From Pelolinea sp. (GTDB lineage Bacteria > Chloroflexota > Anaerolineae > Anaerolineales > Anaerolineaceae): a stretch of DNA of 64,000 nt. Made by a program: the position numbers and the translations under genes. The stretch lies in contig JAAZOD010000025.1 in assembly GCA_012797975.1 (NCBI GenBank), forward strand, positions 1 to 64,000, given 5' to 3'. The notes below the pieces were generated by a model. The model was not told the DNA's origin. It saw only the letters and a list, made by a program, of their open reading frames with translations, and did not search any database. Each line of letters starts with the position of its first letter. Positions within the stretch are counted from its first letter, which is position 1. Of this stretch, positions 9,177 to 64,000 are shown in pieces.

Positions 9177-10292
9177 ATGATGAACAACGACCCATATGCC
9201 ACCTGGCTGGAAATCGACCTGAACGCTATCACCAATAACTATGAACTGCTGAAGAAGATCAGCGGGGTGCCGGTGATGGGGGTGGTGAAAGCCAACGCTT
9301 ATGGTCATGGGCTGAATGAGATCGCCCTGCATCTGCAGGGCATTGGCGCGGACTGGCTGGGGGTGGCGCGCATCGAAGAAGCGCTGCAGTTGCGCGAAAG
9401 CGGCGTGAACCTGCCCATTCTGGTATTGGGATATACCTCGCAGAAGCGGGTGCGCGATGCCCAAAAAGCCAAGATCCATCTCACAGTGTATGACCCGCTG
9501 GTGGCTGCTTTATATGAAAAAGAAGTGGACGCGAAGTTCGGAAAACTGCATCTGCATGCCAAGATCGATACGGGCATGGGGCGCCTGGGGGTACCCTCCA
9601 ATCAGGCCCTGCCGTTCATTGAGGATCTTACCCGCGTTCCCGCCTTCGATCTGGAGGGGGTGTTCACCCATTTTGCCTGTGCCGATGAGCCGGAAAAAGA
9701 GGTGACTGCCCAGCAGATTCGGCGGTTCGAGAATATCGTTGGCAAGATGAAAGAAAAAGGCATCAACCCGGGTATTATGCATGCCGCCAACTCCGCCGGT
9801 ACCTTGAACTATCCCCAGGCGCATTACCGCATGGTGCGCTGCGGCATCGCATTGTACGGCTTAACCCCAGCCGCTGCGATGACTTTACCGGAAGGTTTCA
9901 AACCGGCCCTGTCTTGGAAGACGCGCCTGATCTCCATTAAACGCATGTCCGAAGGGTTCGGTATCAGCTACGGGCATCGCTATCATACCAAGGAGGGCGA
10001 GCGCATCGGCGCCATTGCTGTGGGCTATGGGGATGGTATGCGCCGGGTGAATGGCAACCATGTGCTGCTGCGCGGCAAGAAAGTGCCGGTGGTGGGTTCG
10101 GTGTGCATGGACCAGTGCATGATCAATATCGATCAGGTGCCCGATGCACAGGTGGGGGATGAAGTGGTTTTGCTGGGATCTCAAAATGGAAGCACCCTCA
10201 GCGCAACGGAGATCGCCGGGGATTGGAACACGATCAATTACGAGGTTATCTGCGGAATGGCTGATCGCATCCCACGCCGCTACATAAAGTGA
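9177..10292 (+). CDS. alr: Alanine racemase
   Basis: A 371-residue PLP enzyme that interconverts L- and D-alanine for peptidoglycan. The PLP lysine is in VMGVVKANAYGHG near residue 35, followed by the barrel strand motifs KIDTGMGRLG and RCGIALYGL; the C-terminal domain has AVGYGDGMRR and SVCMDQCMIN. I start it at ATG 9177 (the second Met follows directly) because the promoter -10 lies 7 nt upstream; the longer frame from 9132 would begin before the promoter. recJ starts on a GTG that overlaps the alr stop, forming a two-gene operon. Confidence 0.93.
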   Translation: MMNNDPYATWLEIDLNAITNNYELLKKISGVPVMGVVKANAYGHGLNEIALHLQGIGADWLGVARIEEALQLRESGVNLPILVLGYTSQKRVRDAQKAKIHLTVYDPLVAALYEKEVDAKFGKLHLHAKIDTGMGRLGVPSNQALPFIEDLTRVPAFDLEGVFTHFACADEPEKEVTAQQIRRFENIVGKMKEKGINPGIMHAANSAGTLNYPQAHYRMVRCGIALYGLTPAAAMTLPEGFKPALSWKTRLISIKRMSEGFGISYGHRYHTKEGERIGAIAVGYGDGMRRVNGNHVLLRGKKVPVVGSVCMDQCMINIDQVPDAQVGDEVVLLGSQNGSTLSATEIAGDWNTINYEVICGMADRIPRRYIK

Positions 10293-12004
10293 TCTTGAAC
10301 AAAATCAACCGAAGCTACAGCGGAAAAGAATGGCTCATGCCGGCGTCGATCCCTGCAGAAGGGATGGAAACGCTGGCGGGTTACCCGCTTTTAATTCAGC
10401 AGGTGCTTTTTAATCGCGGATTGGACAATGCCCGGCAGGCAGAGGAGTTCCTGTATGGTGAAGGGGACCTGTTGGATCCGTATCTCTTGAGCGATGTTCC
10501 CAAAGCCATCGACCGCATTCTGCAGGCCATTGCGAATGGGGAAAAGATGGTGGTGTACGGAGATTTCGATGTGGATGGCATCACCGGCACGGCTTTGTTG
10601 ACCCAGGCGCTGCAGGAGATGGGCGCGTCGGCCAATCCCTATATTCCTGATCGTTTTTCGGAAGGGTATGGCCTGAACCCGGATGCCATGCGCAGTCTGG
10701 CACAGGCGGGTACCACGCTGCTGATCACGGTGGATTGTGGCATTCGCTCCCCGCAAGAGGTGAAGCTTGCGCAGGAATTGGGGATGGATGTGATCCTCAC
10801 CGATCATCATCTGCCGGGCGAGGAACTGCCGCCGGCGTACGCGGTGATCTGCCAGAAGAAGAATGATGAGCTGTATCCCAACCCGCACATTGCCGGGGTG
10901 GGGCTGGCCTATAAGGTGATGATGGCGCTCTTTCAGCAAGCGGAAAAAAGCCGGGAGGCCATGGAACAGTATTTGGACCTGGTGGCGTTGGGGACGGTGG
11001 CGGATGTGGTGCCGCTGGTGGGGGAGAACCGCACCTTTGTCAAGAAAGGGTTGAAAAAGATCCATGAAGGCAAACGCCCTGGCCTGCGTGCTTTGGTAGC
11101 AGAGAGCGGCATCCTGAACATGGAACTGGTCACTTCGGAACATATTGGTTTCCGTCTGGGCCCGCGTCTGAACGCCGCCGGCAGGTTGGATTCGGCAATG
11201 CTGGCCTGGAAGCTGTTGACCACCCATGATGAAAGCGAAGCATGCACGCTGGCCGCCAATTTGAACACGTTGAACAGCGACCGTCAGTCAAAGACCGAAG
11301 AGGCATTTCAAACCGCCAGTGAAGAATTGGGTGCGGCGGATACGCCGGTCCTGTTTGCCATCAATGAGCTGTTCCATGAGGGGATCGTGGGGCTGGTGGC
11401 TTCCAAACTGACCGAGGAATATCACCGTCCGGCCATTGTGGGAACCGATCACCAGGGATTGATCCGCGCATCCTGCCGCAGCGTGGAAGAGTTCAACATC
11501 ACCTATGCACTGGACCGCTGTTCCGATCTGCTGGTGCAGTATGGCGGGCACAGCATGGCAGCCGGCCTGACCATCGAAAAAGATAATATGGAGCAGTTTA
11601 AAGAAAAACTATGTCAGATCGCACAAAGCGAGGTGGATTGGCTGGAAACCTGCTCCAAACTTCAGTTGGATGGAGAGGTATCGGCTGGACAGATTGTCAG
11701 CCAGATCCCGGCCATCATGAAAACGTTGGAGCTTTTCGAACCGACCGGGGAGGGCAACAACCGCCCGCTGCTCCTGAACCGCGGGATGCGGGTGGTGGAG
11801 AAACGCACGGTCGGGAAAACTGCCAAACATTTGAAGTTGAAATTAAGGGATGGGAATATCCTGTGGGATGCCATTGCCTTCGGTTTTGGGGAAAAACTGG
11901 ATGCCATTGCTGAGAATGTGGATGTGGCGTTTCATTTCGGTGTCAACGATTTCAATGGGGGAATTCAATTGGTGGTGCGTGATCTGCGCAAATCGGCAGG
12001 CTAA
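10289..12004 (+). CDS. recJ: Single-stranded-DNA-specific exonuclease RecJ
   Basis: A 571-residue DHH-family 5'-3' exonuclease used in recombination and mismatch repair. Motif order is canonical: VVYGDFDVDGITGTALL, TVDCGIRS, TDHHLPGEELP (DHH), DLVALGTVADVVPL, then the DHHA1 domain with EGIVGLVASKL, RASCRS and YGGHSMAAG, and an OB-like C-terminus. The start is GTG at 10289 within GTGA, overlapping the alr stop by 4 nt. Length is normal for RecJ. The 3' end overlaps the convergent glycosyltransferase by 4 nt. Confidence 0.94.
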   Translation: MILNKINRSYSGKEWLMPASIPAEGMETLAGYPLLIQQVLFNRGLDNARQAEEFLYGEGDLLDPYLLSDVPKAIDRILQAIANGEKMVVYGDFDVDGITGTALLTQALQEMGASANPYIPDRFSEGYGLNPDAMRSLAQAGTTLLITVDCGIRSPQEVKLAQELGMDVILTDHHLPGEELPPAYAVICQKKNDELYPNPHIAGVGLAYKVMMALFQQAEKSREAMEQYLDLVALGTVADVVPLVGENRTFVKKGLKKIHEGKRPGLRALVAESGILNMELVTSEHIGFRLGPRLNAAGRLDSAMLAWKLLTTHDESEACTLAANLNTLNSDRQSKTEEAFQTASEELGAADTPVLFAINELFHEGIVGLVASKLTEEYHRPAIVGTDHQGLIRASCRSVEEFNITYALDRCSDLLVQYGGHSMAAGLTIEKDNMEQFKEKLCQIAQSEVDWLETCSKLQLDGEVSAGQIVSQIPAIMKTLELFEPTGEGNNRPLLLNRGMRVVEKRTVGKTAKHLKLKLRDGNILWDAIAFGFGEKLDAIAENVDVAFHFGVNDFNGGIQLVVRDLRKSAG

Positions 12005-12684
12005 TTCTTCTGGAAGCGTAATCTGATCAACGTCCATAACGCGATGAATGCGTCGCGCGGACGGATCTTCTTGCCCTGGTGGTAGGCGCGCGGGTGAAAG
12101 CGCACCGGCACCTCGTGAATGGGGATGCGCCGTTTGATGAGTCGCGCGGTGATCTCGGGTTCGATCTCAAAGCCATCTGAAGTGAGGATAAGCTTTTGCA
12201 AGACATCTTTATGGAAAACCTTGTAGCCGGTTTCCATGTCGGTTAAATGCGTTCCATAGAGCAGATTGGTGGCAAAGGTGAGAAAGCGGTTGGCGAGCAT
12301 GTTCCAGAACAGGATGCCCTCAGGGATGGTGTGCAGGAAACGCGACCCATATACCACCTGCGCGTCACCGTTCCGGATGGGCTGGAGCAGCGCGGCATAA
12401 TCGAGCGGGTCATATTCCAGGTCGGCATCCTGGATGAGGACGATATCGCCGCTGGCATGTTGCAGGCCGGTGCGCACGGCGGCACCCTTGCCGCGGTTGA
12501 CTGGATGCGTATAGATGACGGTCGATGGATCGTGGAGGGAATCCAGGATTGCCTGGGTCTGGTCGGAAGAGCCGTCATTGACGAAGAGCATCTCCTGAAC
12601 CAGGTTGGTTTCTTTCACTTTTTGATAGGTGCAGAGGATGGAGGATTCTTCATTGAAGACGGGGATAATGACGCTGACTTTCAT
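12001..12684 (-). CDS. Family 2 glycosyltransferase, polyprenyl-phosphate hexose synthase-like
   Basis: A 227-residue GT-A fold enzyme that resembles dolichol/undecaprenyl-phosphate mannosyl- or glucosyltransferases. It begins VSVIIPVFNEESSIL, has the nucleotide-sugar DxD region QDADLEYDPLDY, then YGSRFL, DMETGYKVFHKDV and a helical C-terminus lacking the two membrane helices of GtrB-type enzymes. The donor is probably GDP- or UDP-hexose and the acceptor a polyprenyl phosphate, by family knowledge. It is a single gene converging on recJ with a 4-nt overlap. Product lipid-linked sugar could serve GT-C enzymes such as the one at 43.6-45.6 kb. Confidence 0.85.
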   Translation of the reverse strand: MKVSVIIPVFNEESSILCTYQKVKETNLVQEMLFVNDGSSDQTQAILDSLHDPSTVIYTHPVNRGKGAAVRTGLQHASGDIVLIQDADLEYDPLDYAALLQPIRNGDAQVVYGSRFLHTIPEGILFWNMLANRFLTFATNLLYGTHLTDMETGYKVFHKDVLQKLILTSDGFEIEPEITARLIKRRIPIHEVPVRFHPRAYHQGKKIRPRDAFIALWTLIRLRFQKN

Positions 12685-12742
12685 ACTAAGGATTATAAAT
12701 GAAGTGAGTGTGGGATTGGGATTCGGTTTTGTGGTTTAGATA

Positions 12743-12769
12743 GGTGGCGGCATTTGAATACCGCCCTAC
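12743..12769. repeat. Small palindrome ending CCGCCCTAC, copy 1
   Basis: GGTGGCGG, a 10-nt AT-rich loop, then CCGCCCTAC: a short stem (GGCGG/CCGCC) with a conserved CTAC tail. A related copy lies at 12816-12838. These look like dispersed REP-type elements. They sit in the 323-bp gap 12685-13007, which otherwise shows no gene. Confidence 0.45.
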
Positions 12770-12815
12770 GACCAAGAGAACGTTTCAATCAGATTATTGG
12801 AAGGTTAACTTTGAT

Positions 12816-12838
12816 GGTGGATTGGAAACCCGCCCTAC
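12816..12838. repeat. Small palindrome ending CCGCCCTAC, copy 2
   Basis: GGTGG, an ATTGGAAA loop, then CCCGCCCTAC, sharing the tail and stem of the element at 12743. Two copies 73 bp apart, with a third unrelated palindrome at 13533, bracket the AT-rich gene at 13008. Confidence 0.45.
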
Positions 12839-13007
12839 ATTATAAATGATAAGGAGTGGAAAAATCAGGAGTATAGAAAAACGGGAAACCCATTGGTCGA
12901 GTTATAAGGGATTTCTTATTTGGTATTTATTTGTAGGTTATTAATTGCATATTGAACTAAGAGAAAGGGTGTCATAATAAATGTGTACTAAAGGCTAGGG
13001 TTAAGAT

Positions 13008-13502
13008 ATGGAAAATATGCAAAAATTTCCAGAATTTTTAGGTTGGAGTTTATATATGTCAGGCGGATGGCAAAGTCAATTCAAAAGAGTTAAACGCTGG
13101 TATCAAAGAGCTCAGAATACCAGTAATTCTATTGATAGATTAGATTTTTTATATACTTTCTTTGAGAATGCTTTCCATCTTCGCGATTGGTTAATATATA
13201 CAAATTCCGTGTCAAGAGATGAGCTAAATAAGTTATTTAGAGAGAATGAGAGTATGAGTCTTTGTCGCGATCTTGCCAATTCTCATAAACATTATGCGAT
13301 TAACTCTCCAAGTCAACCTATTCCGCCTTCTGAAATAAGGGAATACACAACACAAAATGGAAATCTTGGTTCTAATTATTCGTTAATAATAATTAGTGAT
13401 GGGAAAAAAATTGATGCATTTCTTCTTGCAGGAAAGATTATGCAGACTTGGGAACATTTTATTAAGTTGAAATTACAAAAAGAAGAAGGAGATATAGAAT
13501 AG
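13008..13502 (+). CDS. Hypothetical protein, AT-rich orphan gene
   Basis: A 164-residue soluble protein (MENMQKFPEFLGWSLYM... to KLQKEEGDIE) of no family I recognise. It is rich in aromatic and charged residues. The middle (FLYTFFENAFHLRDWLIY, then LCRDLANSHKHYAI) contains spaced His and Asp residues reminiscent of small HEPN-like or DUF proteins that measure or bind a ligand, but no Rx4-6H catalytic motif is clear. There is no signal peptide or membrane segment. The base composition is far more AT-rich than the adjacent recJ and glycosyltransferase, and palindromes flank it, so recent acquisition is likely. A coding frame of this length in AT-rich DNA, with ordinary codon use, supports it as a real gene. 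Confidence 0.65.
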   Translation: MENMQKFPEFLGWSLYMSGGWQSQFKRVKRWYQRAQNTSNSIDRLDFLYTFFENAFHLRDWLIYTNSVSRDELNKLFRENESMSLCRDLANSHKHYAINSPSQPIPPSEIREYTTQNGNLGSNYSLIIISDGKKIDAFLLAGKIMQTWEHFIKLKLQKEEGDIE

Positions 13503-61655: not shown

Positions 61656-62861
61656 ATGTATCTCCGACATATCTCCCTCACCAATTTTCGGACCTTCCAG
61701 CGCCTGGAGGTTGATGTTCCGGAGCATGTGACGGTGCTGGTGGGAAACAATGCGCAGGGCAAGACCAGCTTTTTGGAGGCGATCAATTTTTTTTCCACGC
61801 TCACTTCGGTGCAGGCTGGTAAAGATCGGGAGTTGATCAATTTCACGGCTCTTGAAGAAGAGATGCCGGTCGCCCGTCTGGTGATGGATTTCAAACGCGG
61901 AAAGGCCGATCATAAAATGGAAGCCCGCCTGATCTTGGGCAATGGCGGCAACGGGGGTGGCCGGCTGCGCAAGGAAGTGCTGTTGGACGGCATCAAACGG
62001 CCGTTGCAGCACGCCTTGGGGAATTTTAACTCGGTGGTCTTTCTGCCACAGATGACGGAGATCGTGGAAGATGGGCCGGATGAACGCCGCCGATACTTGG
62101 ATATGACCATTTCCCAGGTATATCCTGGGTATGCACGTGAACTCTCCGAATATAATCAGGCTCTCAGCCAGCGCAATGCATTATTGAAGACACTGGCGGA
62201 ACGCGGTGGAGATGCCGGACAGCTTGATTTTTGGGATGAACGCATCGCTGAAAAAGGCAGTTTCATCATGCGCACACGCCTGCAAATGTTGGGAGAATTT
62301 GAACAACAGGTTTCTGTGGTCCATCTGAAATTATCCGAGAACAAACTGCCGCTGACGATCACCTACCTGCCTGGATTCGATAGGAAAAATGGGCAGTCTG
62401 CACAAGATGCCTTTACCTTTTCTGCAGAAAAAGACGCTGATTCTTGCAAGATCAGCCAGGAAGCATTAAAAGCAGCGTTCGTTGAAAAACTGCAGACCGT
62501 GCGCAAGGATGAAATCCAGCGCGGAGTGACCACGCAAGGACCGCACCGCGATGAATTGCGATTTATTGCCAACCAGATCGATATGGGCACTTATGGCTCA
62601 CGCGGGCAGATCCGTACGGTTTTGATGGCGCTCAAGATCGGCGAGATGCATTGGCTGCGCGAAAAGACTGGGGAATGGCCGGTGCTGCTGCTGGATGAGA
62701 CGCTGGCCGAACTGGACCTGGCGCACCGCGATGCCCTGCTGCATGCCCTGGGTGATTGCGAGCAAGCCATTCTCACCGCCACGGATGCGAGCATGTTCAA
62801 TCCTGATTTTCTAAAAACCTGCAGCATTTTGAAAGTGGAAGAAGGGCGAATTTTCGCTTAA
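61656..62861 (+). CDS. recF: DNA replication and repair protein RecF
   Basis: A 401-residue SMC-like ATPase loading RecA at gaps. Walker A is LVGNNAQGKTSFLEAI (~30); the family signature TTQGPHRDELRF precedes GSRGQIRTVLMALKI, and the Walker B/D-loop is LLLDETLAELDLAHRDAL. N-terminus MYLRHISLTNFRTFQ is typical. It lies 14 nt after def, not next to dnaN-gyrB, so it is not in the classical origin cluster. No second recF is evident here. The next gene starts 119 nt later. Confidence 0.94.
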   Translation: MYLRHISLTNFRTFQRLEVDVPEHVTVLVGNNAQGKTSFLEAINFFSTLTSVQAGKDRELINFTALEEEMPVARLVMDFKRGKADHKMEARLILGNGGNGGGRLRKEVLLDGIKRPLQHALGNFNSVVFLPQMTEIVEDGPDERRRYLDMTISQVYPGYARELSEYNQALSQRNALLKTLAERGGDAGQLDFWDERIAEKGSFIMRTRLQMLGEFEQQVSVVHLKLSENKLPLTITYLPGFDRKNGQSAQDAFTFSAEKDADSCKISQEALKAAFVEKLQTVRKDEIQRGVTTQGPHRDELRFIANQIDMGTYGSRGQIRTVLMALKIGEMHWLREKTGEWPVLLLDETLAELDLAHRDALLHALGDCEQAILTATDASMFNPDFLKTCSILKVEEGRIFA

Positions 62862-62935
62862 GTGAGTTTTTCATTTTCCAATCTATCATGCATCAATTTC
62901 ATTAATTCCGATCCGGGTTAAAAAGTTAATCTTTA

Positions 62936-62944
62936 TGCTAAGAT
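62936..62944 (+). promoter_or_regulatory. Extended -10 promoter of the STAND protein gene
   Basis: TGCTAAGAT matches an extended -10 (TG-n-TAAGAT). The leader to the ATG at 62980 is about 30 nt and includes GAGGG as a ribosome binding site. No good -35 is seen. Confidence 0.45.
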
Positions 62945-62979
62945 AGATACATTAACGCTTTTTTCACTGAAGAGGGTTC

Positions 62980-64000
62980 ATGCACGAGAATAATTCACGC
63001 CAGATCCGCATTTTTATCTCATCCACGTTTCTTGATATGCAACGAGAACGGGACTACCTCGTCAAATTTACCTTTCCCCAATTGAGGAAACTTTGCGAAG
63101 AACGGGGAGTGACTTGGAGCGAGGTGGATTTGCGATGGGGGATCACCAGTGAACAGTCTGCTGAAGACCAGGTTTTGCCTATCTGTCTGGAGGAGATCCA
63201 GCGCTGCAAACCATATTTCATAGGAATATTGGGAGAACGATATGGCTGGATTCCACAGGTCATCGATCCTGCATTAATGGATCGTGAACCATGGTTGGCT
63301 GAACAAATTGATCATTCTGTGACGGAATTGGAGATCCTGCACGGCGTTCTGAATAATCCGGAGATGGCAAAACGAGCATTTTTCTATTTTCGCGATCCTG
63401 GTGCAATCCCGGGTGGCCAGGAAAATGTTTTTCTTGAAATGCCGTTGCAAGAAGAGGTGGATCGTTTTGGTAAAGAAGAAGCATGGAAACGAACCGAGTC
63501 GCGCAGGAAAAAACTGACAGCGCTGAAGAGTAAGATTCGTAGAAGCGGTCTTCCGTTGAAAGAGAATTTCAATTCTCCGCAGCAATTGGGAGAATGGGTG
63601 TTGCAGGATCTGACCGGCATCATCGAGCAGATGTATCCTGCAGGATCTCAACCCACCCCATTGCAGCGAGTGATTCGTGAACAAGAGACTTTTGCTGAAA
63701 GCCGTACCCGTGTGTATGTGGGTGGGGAACGATATTTTAAGCAGATCGAAGAACATCTTGCACAGAAGCATGTTCCCCTCGCGTTGACAGGAGAACCTGG
63801 GATCGGTAAATCAGCTTTGCTGGCGAATTGGGGATTGCAGTATCGCCGCACACATCAGGATGTGAAAGTGCTGATGCATTTCATTGGTACCAATACCGCT
63901 TCAGGTGATTGGGCTGCTATCCTGCGCAGGATTATCGGAGAACTGCAGGATCATTTTGGCCTTGAAGGGGAAATTCCGGAGGATGTTAATGCATTGCGGG
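62980..64000 (+). CDS. DUF4062-NACHT (STAND) NTPase, N-terminal part, runs off window
   Basis: The open frame from ATG 62980 (behind GAGGG) continues without a stop to the window edge, 340 codons. Residues ~8-110 match DUF4062 (IRIFISSTFLDMQRERDYLV, VDLRWGITSEQSAEDQVLPI). After a helical linker, a NACHT-type P-loop begins: LALTGEPGIGKSALLANWG (~265). Proteins of this layout usually continue with TPR or WD40 repeats and belong to the STAND class, some of which are antiviral sensors; DUF4062 is also seen in eukaryotic NPHP3-like proteins. Domain order is firm; the missing C-terminus prevents a functional call. Its location next to recF, without other defence genes, is not informative. Confidence 0.88.
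   Translation, partial: MHENNSRQIRIFISSTFLDMQRERDYLVKFTFPQLRKLCEERGVTWSEVDLRWGITSEQSAEDQVLPICLEEIQRCKPYFIGILGERYGWIPQVIDPALMDREPWLAEQIDHSVTELEILHGVLNNPEMAKRAFFYFRDPGAIPGGQENVFLEMPLQEEVDRFGKEEAWKRTESRRKKLTALKSKIRRSGLPLKENFNSPQQLGEWVLQDLTGIIEQMYPAGSQPTPLQRVIREQETFAESRTRVYVGGERYFKQIEEHLAQKHVPLALTGEPGIGKSALLANWGLQYRRTHQDVKVLMHFIGTNTASGDWAAILRRIIGELQDHFGLEGEIPEDVNALR

What the first reader, a model, noticed from the sequence alone, without database searches (positions are those of the whole stretch)
62980..64000. STAND NTPase beginning at the right edge
DUF4062 followed by a NACHT P-loop marks a large sensor-type ATPase, cut by the window. Some NACHT STAND proteins sense phage proteins. The visible part contains no nuclease or other effector, although DUF4062 may be a signalling module. 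Extension to the right is needed to see repeats and effectors.
Basis: partly seen in the sequence, partly recalled or inferred. Interest (0 to 1): 0.5.

Follow-up and report, generated by a model that had tools for sequence, protein, structure and literature searches.

The report
Bacterial cousin of human TEP1
The cut gene encodes a complete bacterial immune-receptor-like protein whose front end resembles an NAD-destroying domain of a human protein called TEP1, so it probably stops the cell, and any virus in it, by burning up its NAD.

Summary
In the host contig the gene runs 62980-65889 and is intact (969 aa): DUF4062, NACHT, a helical region, then six 40-residue TPR repeats. The nearest named relative is an Anaerolineaceae bacterium. 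A May 2026 preprint (PMC13174449) shows DUF4062 is a TIR-like NADase, active in the bacterial defence protein KpSwz and in human TEP1. Our domain matches TEP1 at E 7e-33 but KpSwz only at 0.53, and TEP1's catalytic Glu1008 aligns with our E118, kept in 23 of 23 bacterial proteins aligned. A weak model matches TIR folds best; a relative's TPRs match the peptide-binding LGN superhelix. The neighbours are housekeeping genes, recF and rsmG. That site is empty in one congener, holds a tandem pair in another, and the gene is mosaic and diverges faster than recF. Best reading: a single-gene abortive-infection receptor in which TPRs sense, NACHT oligomerises and DUF4062 hydrolyses NAD+. Nothing here tests phage protection. 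New variant of a known kind.

The parts
62980..64000 (+). Visible 5' part (codons 1-340) of the DUF4062-NACHT-TPR gene; the gene ends outside the window at contig position 65889 (969 aa)
62980..63654 (+). DUF4062 / TIR-like domain, about residues 1-225, TEP1 type; proposed NADase effector
63238..63240 (+). Codon of R87, equivalent of TEP1 R976 (active-site Arg)
   Evidence: equivalence through PMC13174449 numbering and chain 11gz
63331..63333 (+). Codon of E118, equivalent of TEP1 catalytic E1008, in motif SVTELE
   Evidence: PMC13174449
63790..63813 (+). NACHT P-loop (Walker A) GEPGIGKS, residues 271-278; the NACHT domain continues beyond the window to residue 428
   Evidence: G271, G274, G276, K277, S278 invariant in the 8 rows of A1
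62862..62979 (+). 118-bp leader between recF and the gene; holds TGCTAAGAT, shared with G119 and G120a (possible -10 region). No strict sigma-70 match.
61656..62861 (+). recF, left border of the variable site (in relative G118 recF and rsmG are 4 bp apart)

Best explanation
A one-gene intracellular immune receptor. The C-terminal superhelix of LGN-like TPRs binds a foreign or aberrant protein segment. That releases the NACHT ATPase to exchange nucleotide and oligomerise. Oligomerisation brings the N-terminal DUF4062 (TIR-like) domains together, E118 becomes competent, and NAD+ is split to ADP-ribose and nicotinamide, stopping growth and phage production (abortive infection). Shown here: intact gene, domain order, TEP1-type TIR-like domain by sequence, retained catalytic Glu and P-loop, TPR fold of a relative, and variable gene content at the locus. 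Inferred: NADase activity of this copy, oligomerisation, ligand and phage defence.
For: Full-length architecture. TEP1's TIR-like domain is the best solved relative: phmmer 3.6e-25, family profile 7.3e-33. Catalytic Glu and R87 kept in 24 of 24 aligned rows (23 bacterial plus TEP1), while neighbouring E116 varies in 4. A weak model of the domain (pLDDT 61) aligns best with TIR domains: ranks 1-10, Z 8.4-10.7. The TPR region of the L003 relative (pLDDT mostly 85-93) matches LGN/Pins at Z about 30-31 for the first 11 rows. Sensor swaps: relatives carry TPR or WD40 behind DUF4062-NACHT, and repeat number varies from 6 to 11 among complete close relatives. Empty site in G118, tandem pair in G120. 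G119/G120a dS 1.70 against 0.58 (recF) and 0.45 (deformylase). Mosaic: fourfold-site identity 34/51 for codons 1-160, 21/73 for 161-430, recF 106/164. Literature: DUF4062 NADase and antiphage activity, PMC13174449.
Against: No functional test here. In the preprint human NPHP3, NWD1 and NWD2, which share DUF4062-NACHT, showed no NADase activity, so architecture alone does not give activity. TEP1 R908, whose alanine change lowers activity, is Leu18 here. The antiphage proteins tested in the preprint are described as having a different C-terminal auxiliary domain, and KpSwz is distant in sequence. The neighbours are housekeeping genes, with no defence island. No match in phage records nor a confirmed relative in viral contigs. 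PADLOC has no real model for it. The full-length model is uninformative outside the TPRs. Two further relatives have Gln at the R87 position.
Confidence: 0.62

Rival explanations
1. Same receptor layout, but DUF4062 is a catalytically idle TIR-like scaffold, as the preprint found for NPHP3, NWD1 and NWD2, that signals by recruiting another effector.
For: Three of the four human DUF4062-NACHT proteins tested were inactive (PMC13174449). The Arg908 equivalent is Leu18. TEP1 itself was slow and more active at high concentration.
Against: Catalytic Glu invariant in 24 of 24 aligned rows and R87 likewise. No partner gene is conserved beside it in the contexts read.
Confidence: 0.2
2. A cellular signalling or quality-control STAND protein (stress, development, peptide sensing) that is not antiviral.
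For: Housekeeping neighbourhood. Same chromosomal site in three species of one genus. TPR fold also close to Rap/NprR peptide sensors.
Against: Patchy: 14 of 147 family genomes at E<=1e-20. Empty site, tandem copy, mosaic and accelerated divergence fit conflict genes better than housekeeping.
Confidence: 0.15
3. A decaying or non-expressed acquired gene.
For: A relative, G085:C29, has an in-frame TGA in the DUF4062 part; G102:C35 has an in-frame TAA.
Against: This copy is open over 969 codons with motifs intact. dN well below dS in the DUF4062 part of the G119/G120a pair (0.098 against 0.82).
Confidence: 0.03

Closest known systems
Human TEP1 (DUF4062 = TIR-like NADase, NACHT, helical, WD40)
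   Same: DUF4062 aligned over about 213 residues, E 7.3e-33 by profile; same catalytic Glu and one of the active-site Args; DUF4062 directly before NACHT
   Different: TPR instead of WD40 sensor; no TROVE/vWA part, no vault; R908 position is Leu18
Human NPHP3 (DUF4062-NACHT-helical-TPR)
   Same: Same domain order (NPHP3's TPRs from recall and from the Pfam name TPR_NPHP3); Pfam NPHP3_hel near its cut-off (26.3 against 27.9 bits)
   Different: NPHP3 gave no NADase activity in the preprint; its catalytic residue was not compared here; its own Pfam domains score below cut-off on our protein
Swarozyc (KpSwz)
   Same: Same Pfam family DUF4062 with a catalytic Glu; proposed NAD+ depletion
   Different: Short DUF4062 plus stalk and HTH/winged AUX domain, no NACHT or TPR; profile E only 0.53, limited to the first strand and helix
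Bacterial NACHT / Avs STAND defence proteins
   Same: N-terminal effector, central NACHT, C-terminal sensor (layout as summarised in PMC10907252 passages)
   Different: No PADLOC match as a system (only generic TPR and mad8 at weak scores)
LGN/Pins (GPSM2) TPR domain
   Same: 40-residue TPRs with an LGN motif at the repeat start; Z about 30-31 over about 295 residues for the L003 relative; PINS phmmer 1.6e-6 for our protein
   Different: Fold and repeat type only; LGN is a spindle-orientation scaffold (recalled), no STAND

Membership tests
DUF4062 (PF13271) | Pfam match above the curated cut-off | tested here: met
   53.2 bits against 24.7
DUF4062 TIR-like NADase | Catalytic glutamate equivalent to TEP1 E1008 | tested here: met
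   E118; numbering fixed by R908/R954/R976 = chain residues 15/61/83 of 11gz, which puts E1008 at residue 115; 24 of 24 rows
DUF4062 TIR-like NADase | TIR-like fold | tested here: inconclusive
   Ten best VIA-align rows are TIR domains, Z 8.4-10.7, but model pLDDT is 61 and Foldseek alone gave no hit at E<=0.001
DUF4062 TIR-like NADase | NAD+ hydrolysis | not testable with these tools
   needs an enzyme assay
STAND / NACHT NTPase | NACHT domain with P-loop, followed by helical region and repeats | tested here: met
   NACHT 31.9 bits against 26.7; GEPGIGKS; six TPR repeats
Swarozyc (KpSwz) | DUF4062 with C-terminal stalk and HTH/winged AUX domain | tested here: not met
   C-terminus is NACHT plus TPR; KpSwz chain 10wc matched at E 0.53 over residues 6-29 only
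TEP1/NWD/NPHP3 group | DUF4062 immediately followed by NACHT and a repeat sensor | tested here: met
   tree puts TEP1 with bacterial DUF4062-NACHT proteins, split from short DUF4062 at 100/98; TEP1 is on a long branch there
Antiphage defence system | Protection from phage | not tested
Antiphage defence system | Location in a defence island (not obligatory) | tested here: not met
   10 neighbours scanned against PADLOC; only generic or weak matches; NCBIfam names RecF, RsmG and peptide deformylase

The most novel reading that the evidence does not exclude
The TEP1/NWD/NPHP3 proteins of animals and this bacterial group share one ancestral DUF4062-NACHT immune receptor. In Anaerolineaceae it lives on as a NAD+-burning 'resistosome' whose TPR groove, LGN-like, reads an extended phage peptide. 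The receptor evolves at a fixed recF-rsmG site by tandem duplication, repeat gain and loss, and recombination that keeps the effector module while replacing the NACHT part.
Probability: 0.3. Interest if true: 0.75.

Novelty: new variant of a known kind. Interest (0 to 1): 0.5.

Why it matters
The five bacterial DUF4062 proteins tested in the preprint are described as carrying a different C-terminal auxiliary domain. This gene and its relatives give a bacterial protein with the actual TEP1/NPHP3 layout, intact, of manageable size (969 aa), with a predicted catalytic residue and a peptide-type sensor. It would let one ask in E. coli whether a NACHT switch controls a TIR-like NADase, which is the idea the preprint puts forward as speculation for TEP1 in the vault. 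It would also help place the origin of an animal gene family.

Tried and rejected
Refuter 'short fragment': rejected, the gene is 969 aa and open. Gene carried by a phage: no match in phage records, no confirmed relative in two scans of viral contigs; best plasmid match is the 179,736-bp Chloroflexota record CP069395 at 32.8% over 59%. Swarozyc membership: rejected on sequence and architecture. Foldseek with the 225-residue model alone: no match at E<=0.001, first rows are aspartate aminotransferases; TIR appears clearly only in the VIA-align second look, so I treat the fold as supported mainly by the TEP1 sequence match. Full-length model: mean pLDDT 48, only the TPRs usable. Sigma-70 promoter and terminator scan of the leader: none found, so the shared TGCTAAGAT box is only a hint; it is absent as such from the G120b and G118 leaders. 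dN/dS as a sign of positive selection: not claimed, dS is saturated or undefined in several regions. Diversity-generating retroelement: no search made. Paper searches for DUF4062 + NACHT, DUF4062, STAND NTPase + antiphage + NACHT + TPR + TIR, and TEP1 + NPHP3 + NACHT + bacteria (listings only, apart from the preprint and passages of PMC10907252) showed no paper on a tested bacterial DUF4062-NACHT-TPR protein; these cover only the open library. The name 'Swarozyc' returned nothing although the preprint holds it, probably printed with an accented letter. Searches were read as listings only.

Rows dropped: of 29 genes that I count were aligned; left out were G085 and G102 (in-frame stops) and G118:C52, G120:C84, G117:C50, G119:C76. 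Later reading of G117:C50 and G118:C52 found the Glu kept but the R87 position as Gln; G120:C84 was never fetched, and G119:C76 and G102 gave no motif hit. Of 8 short DUF4062 loci fetched, 6 passed my motif filter; G310 and G169 did not and are not in the tree. The tree holds 30 rows, without NPHP3, NWD1, NWD2 or KpSwz.

Full report
What is there. The ORF starting at 62980 is real and runs off the window. The window lies in contig C7 (128,400 bp) of a 2.57-Mb genome, 98.5% complete. The full gene is 62980-65889, 969 aa, ATG to TAG. Pfam gives DUF4062 (10-118), NACHT (267-428), a near-threshold NPHP3 helical domain (437-570) and TPRs from about 685. A profile scan finds six 40-residue repeats from 682 to 921, and the C-terminal sequence repeats itself with period 40. 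The nearest named relative, L003, is from Anaerolineaceae bacterium UBA7929, 52% identical over residues 3-967.

The effector. The best solved relative is human TEP1's TIR-like domain (11gz): 3.6e-25 with the protein, 7.3e-33 with a profile of seven close relatives. The same profile finds KpSwz, the founding Swarozyc protein, only at E 0.53 over 24 residues. The preprint PMC13174449, whose main text and figure legends I read (of the reference list only the first entries, and no supplements), reports that DUF4062 proteins are TIR-like NADases. KpSwz depends on E97 and is switched on by a phage portal; TEP1 depends on E1008; NPHP3, NWD1 and NWD2 were inactive in its assay. Its TEP1 arginines 908, 954 and 976 fall on Arg residues 15, 61 and 83 of chain 11gz, which fixes E1008 as residue 115 (counted by hand on the alignment). 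That aligns with our E118. In an alignment of 23 bacterial DUF4062-NACHT proteins and TEP1, this Glu and R87 (R976) are kept in 24 of 24; E116 is kept in 20. R908 is Leu18 here. Six short DUF4062 proteins also have Glu at the corresponding place by eye (sequences printed).

Structure. A model of residues 1-225 from a two-row alignment has mean pLDDT 61, with alternating strands and helices. Foldseek alone is uninformative. In the second look by VIA-align, ranks 1-10 are all TIR domains or TIR-bearing plant receptors at Z 10.7-8.4, followed by CMP N-glycosidases at ranks 11 and 13. The full-length model of L003 is good only over the TPRs; its best matches are LGN/Pins TPR domains at Z about 30-31, next NprR at 24.9. 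LGN and several other listed chains are complexes with bound peptides or partners by their titles, hence the proposal of a peptide-type ligand; that is inference.

Which kind of DUF4062. In a sample of 400 genomes of the phylum, 48 have a Pfam DUF4062 match at E<=0.001, but only 4 match our profile at E<=1e-10. TEP1 scores 36-108 bits against the 23 bacterial DUF4062-NACHT proteins and at most 23 bits against six short ones. A tree splits the six short ones from all DUF4062-NACHT proteins plus TEP1 with 100/98 support; TEP1 sits on a long branch beside another long branch, so its exact place is open. NPHP3, NWD1 and NWD2 were not included because no sequence was at hand. Of the relatives scanned, most carry TPRs or WD40 repeats behind DUF4062-NACHT; two (G238, G048) showed no repeat family at the threshold used. 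Such sensor swaps are expected of STAND receptors.

Locus. Neighbours are peptide deformylase, recF, rsmG and other housekeeping genes; PADLOC gives only generic or weak matches for the ten neighbours scanned. The gene lies between recF and rsmG. Of five genomes of the genus (ours included), G120 has two tandem copies there; G119 has one beside recF, cut by its contig end, so rsmG is not seen; G118 has recF and rsmG 4 bp apart with its close relative elsewhere (C193); in G117 only the first 104 residues of recF match, so the site is not assessable. Relatives in other genera (G096, G143) sit in other contexts. In the family, 14 of 147 genomes match at E<=1e-20.

Evolution. Between G119 and G120a the gene has dS 1.70 (1.36-2.41), against 0.58 (0.46-0.71) for recF and 0.45 (0.30-0.65) for deformylase. 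Along the gene, fourfold-site identity is 34/51 in codons 1-160, like recF (106/164), but 21/73 in codons 161-430 (Fisher p 4e-5; 3e-7 against recF), and 46/95 after that. I chose the boundary after seeing the profile, so the p-values are optimistic, but a mosaic with an inherited effector part and a replaced NACHT part is the plain reading. Identity to our protein falls from DUF4062 (70-76% in the genus) through NACHT (53-63%) to TPR (35-52%), and complete close relatives have 6-11 repeats.

Mechanism. TPRs sense, NACHT oligomerises, DUF4062 hydrolyses NAD+, the infected cell stops. The first step and the phage link are inferred from the STAND class and the Swarozyc precedent; the last is supported by the retained active site. 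The chief doubt is activity, since some DUF4062-NACHT proteins are inactive, and the chief gap is any infection test.

Verdict. A real, complete, bacterial TEP1/NPHP3-like receptor gene; a new variant of a known kind, not a Swarozyc member. Interest is moderate, raised by the direct link to an animal protein whose NACHT control is an open question.

Noticed in passing
L035 9879-16029 (G120:C90): Two tandem DUF4062-NACHT-TPR genes (1002 and 1004 aa), 56% identical, share the recF-rsmG site; a natural pair for sensor-swap tests.
   Followed up: partly
L063 2-4568 and 4854-8096 (G242:C49): A DUF4062 protein (1522 aa, cut at the edge of the stretch) lies directly beside a TIR-WD40 protein of 1081 aa; two different TIR-type receptors next to each other.
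   Followed up: no
L056 807-1841 and 4512-8471 (G025:C3): A 345-aa TIR-domain protein lies near a 1320-aa DUF4062 protein with TPR-type repeats.
   Followed up: no
L038 about 9950-13039 (G085:C29): Relative with an in-frame TGA in the DUF4062 part; pseudogene or assembly error.
   Followed up: no
L041 8818-12717 (G117:C50): A 1299-aa protein with another N-terminal part ahead of a DUF4062-like stretch; keeps the catalytic Glu but has Gln at the R87 position.
   Followed up: no
L002 6683-7645: 320-aa protein with weak prenyltransferase/squalene-cyclase-type matches; similar ORFs lie beside rsmG in G118 and G120.
   Followed up: no
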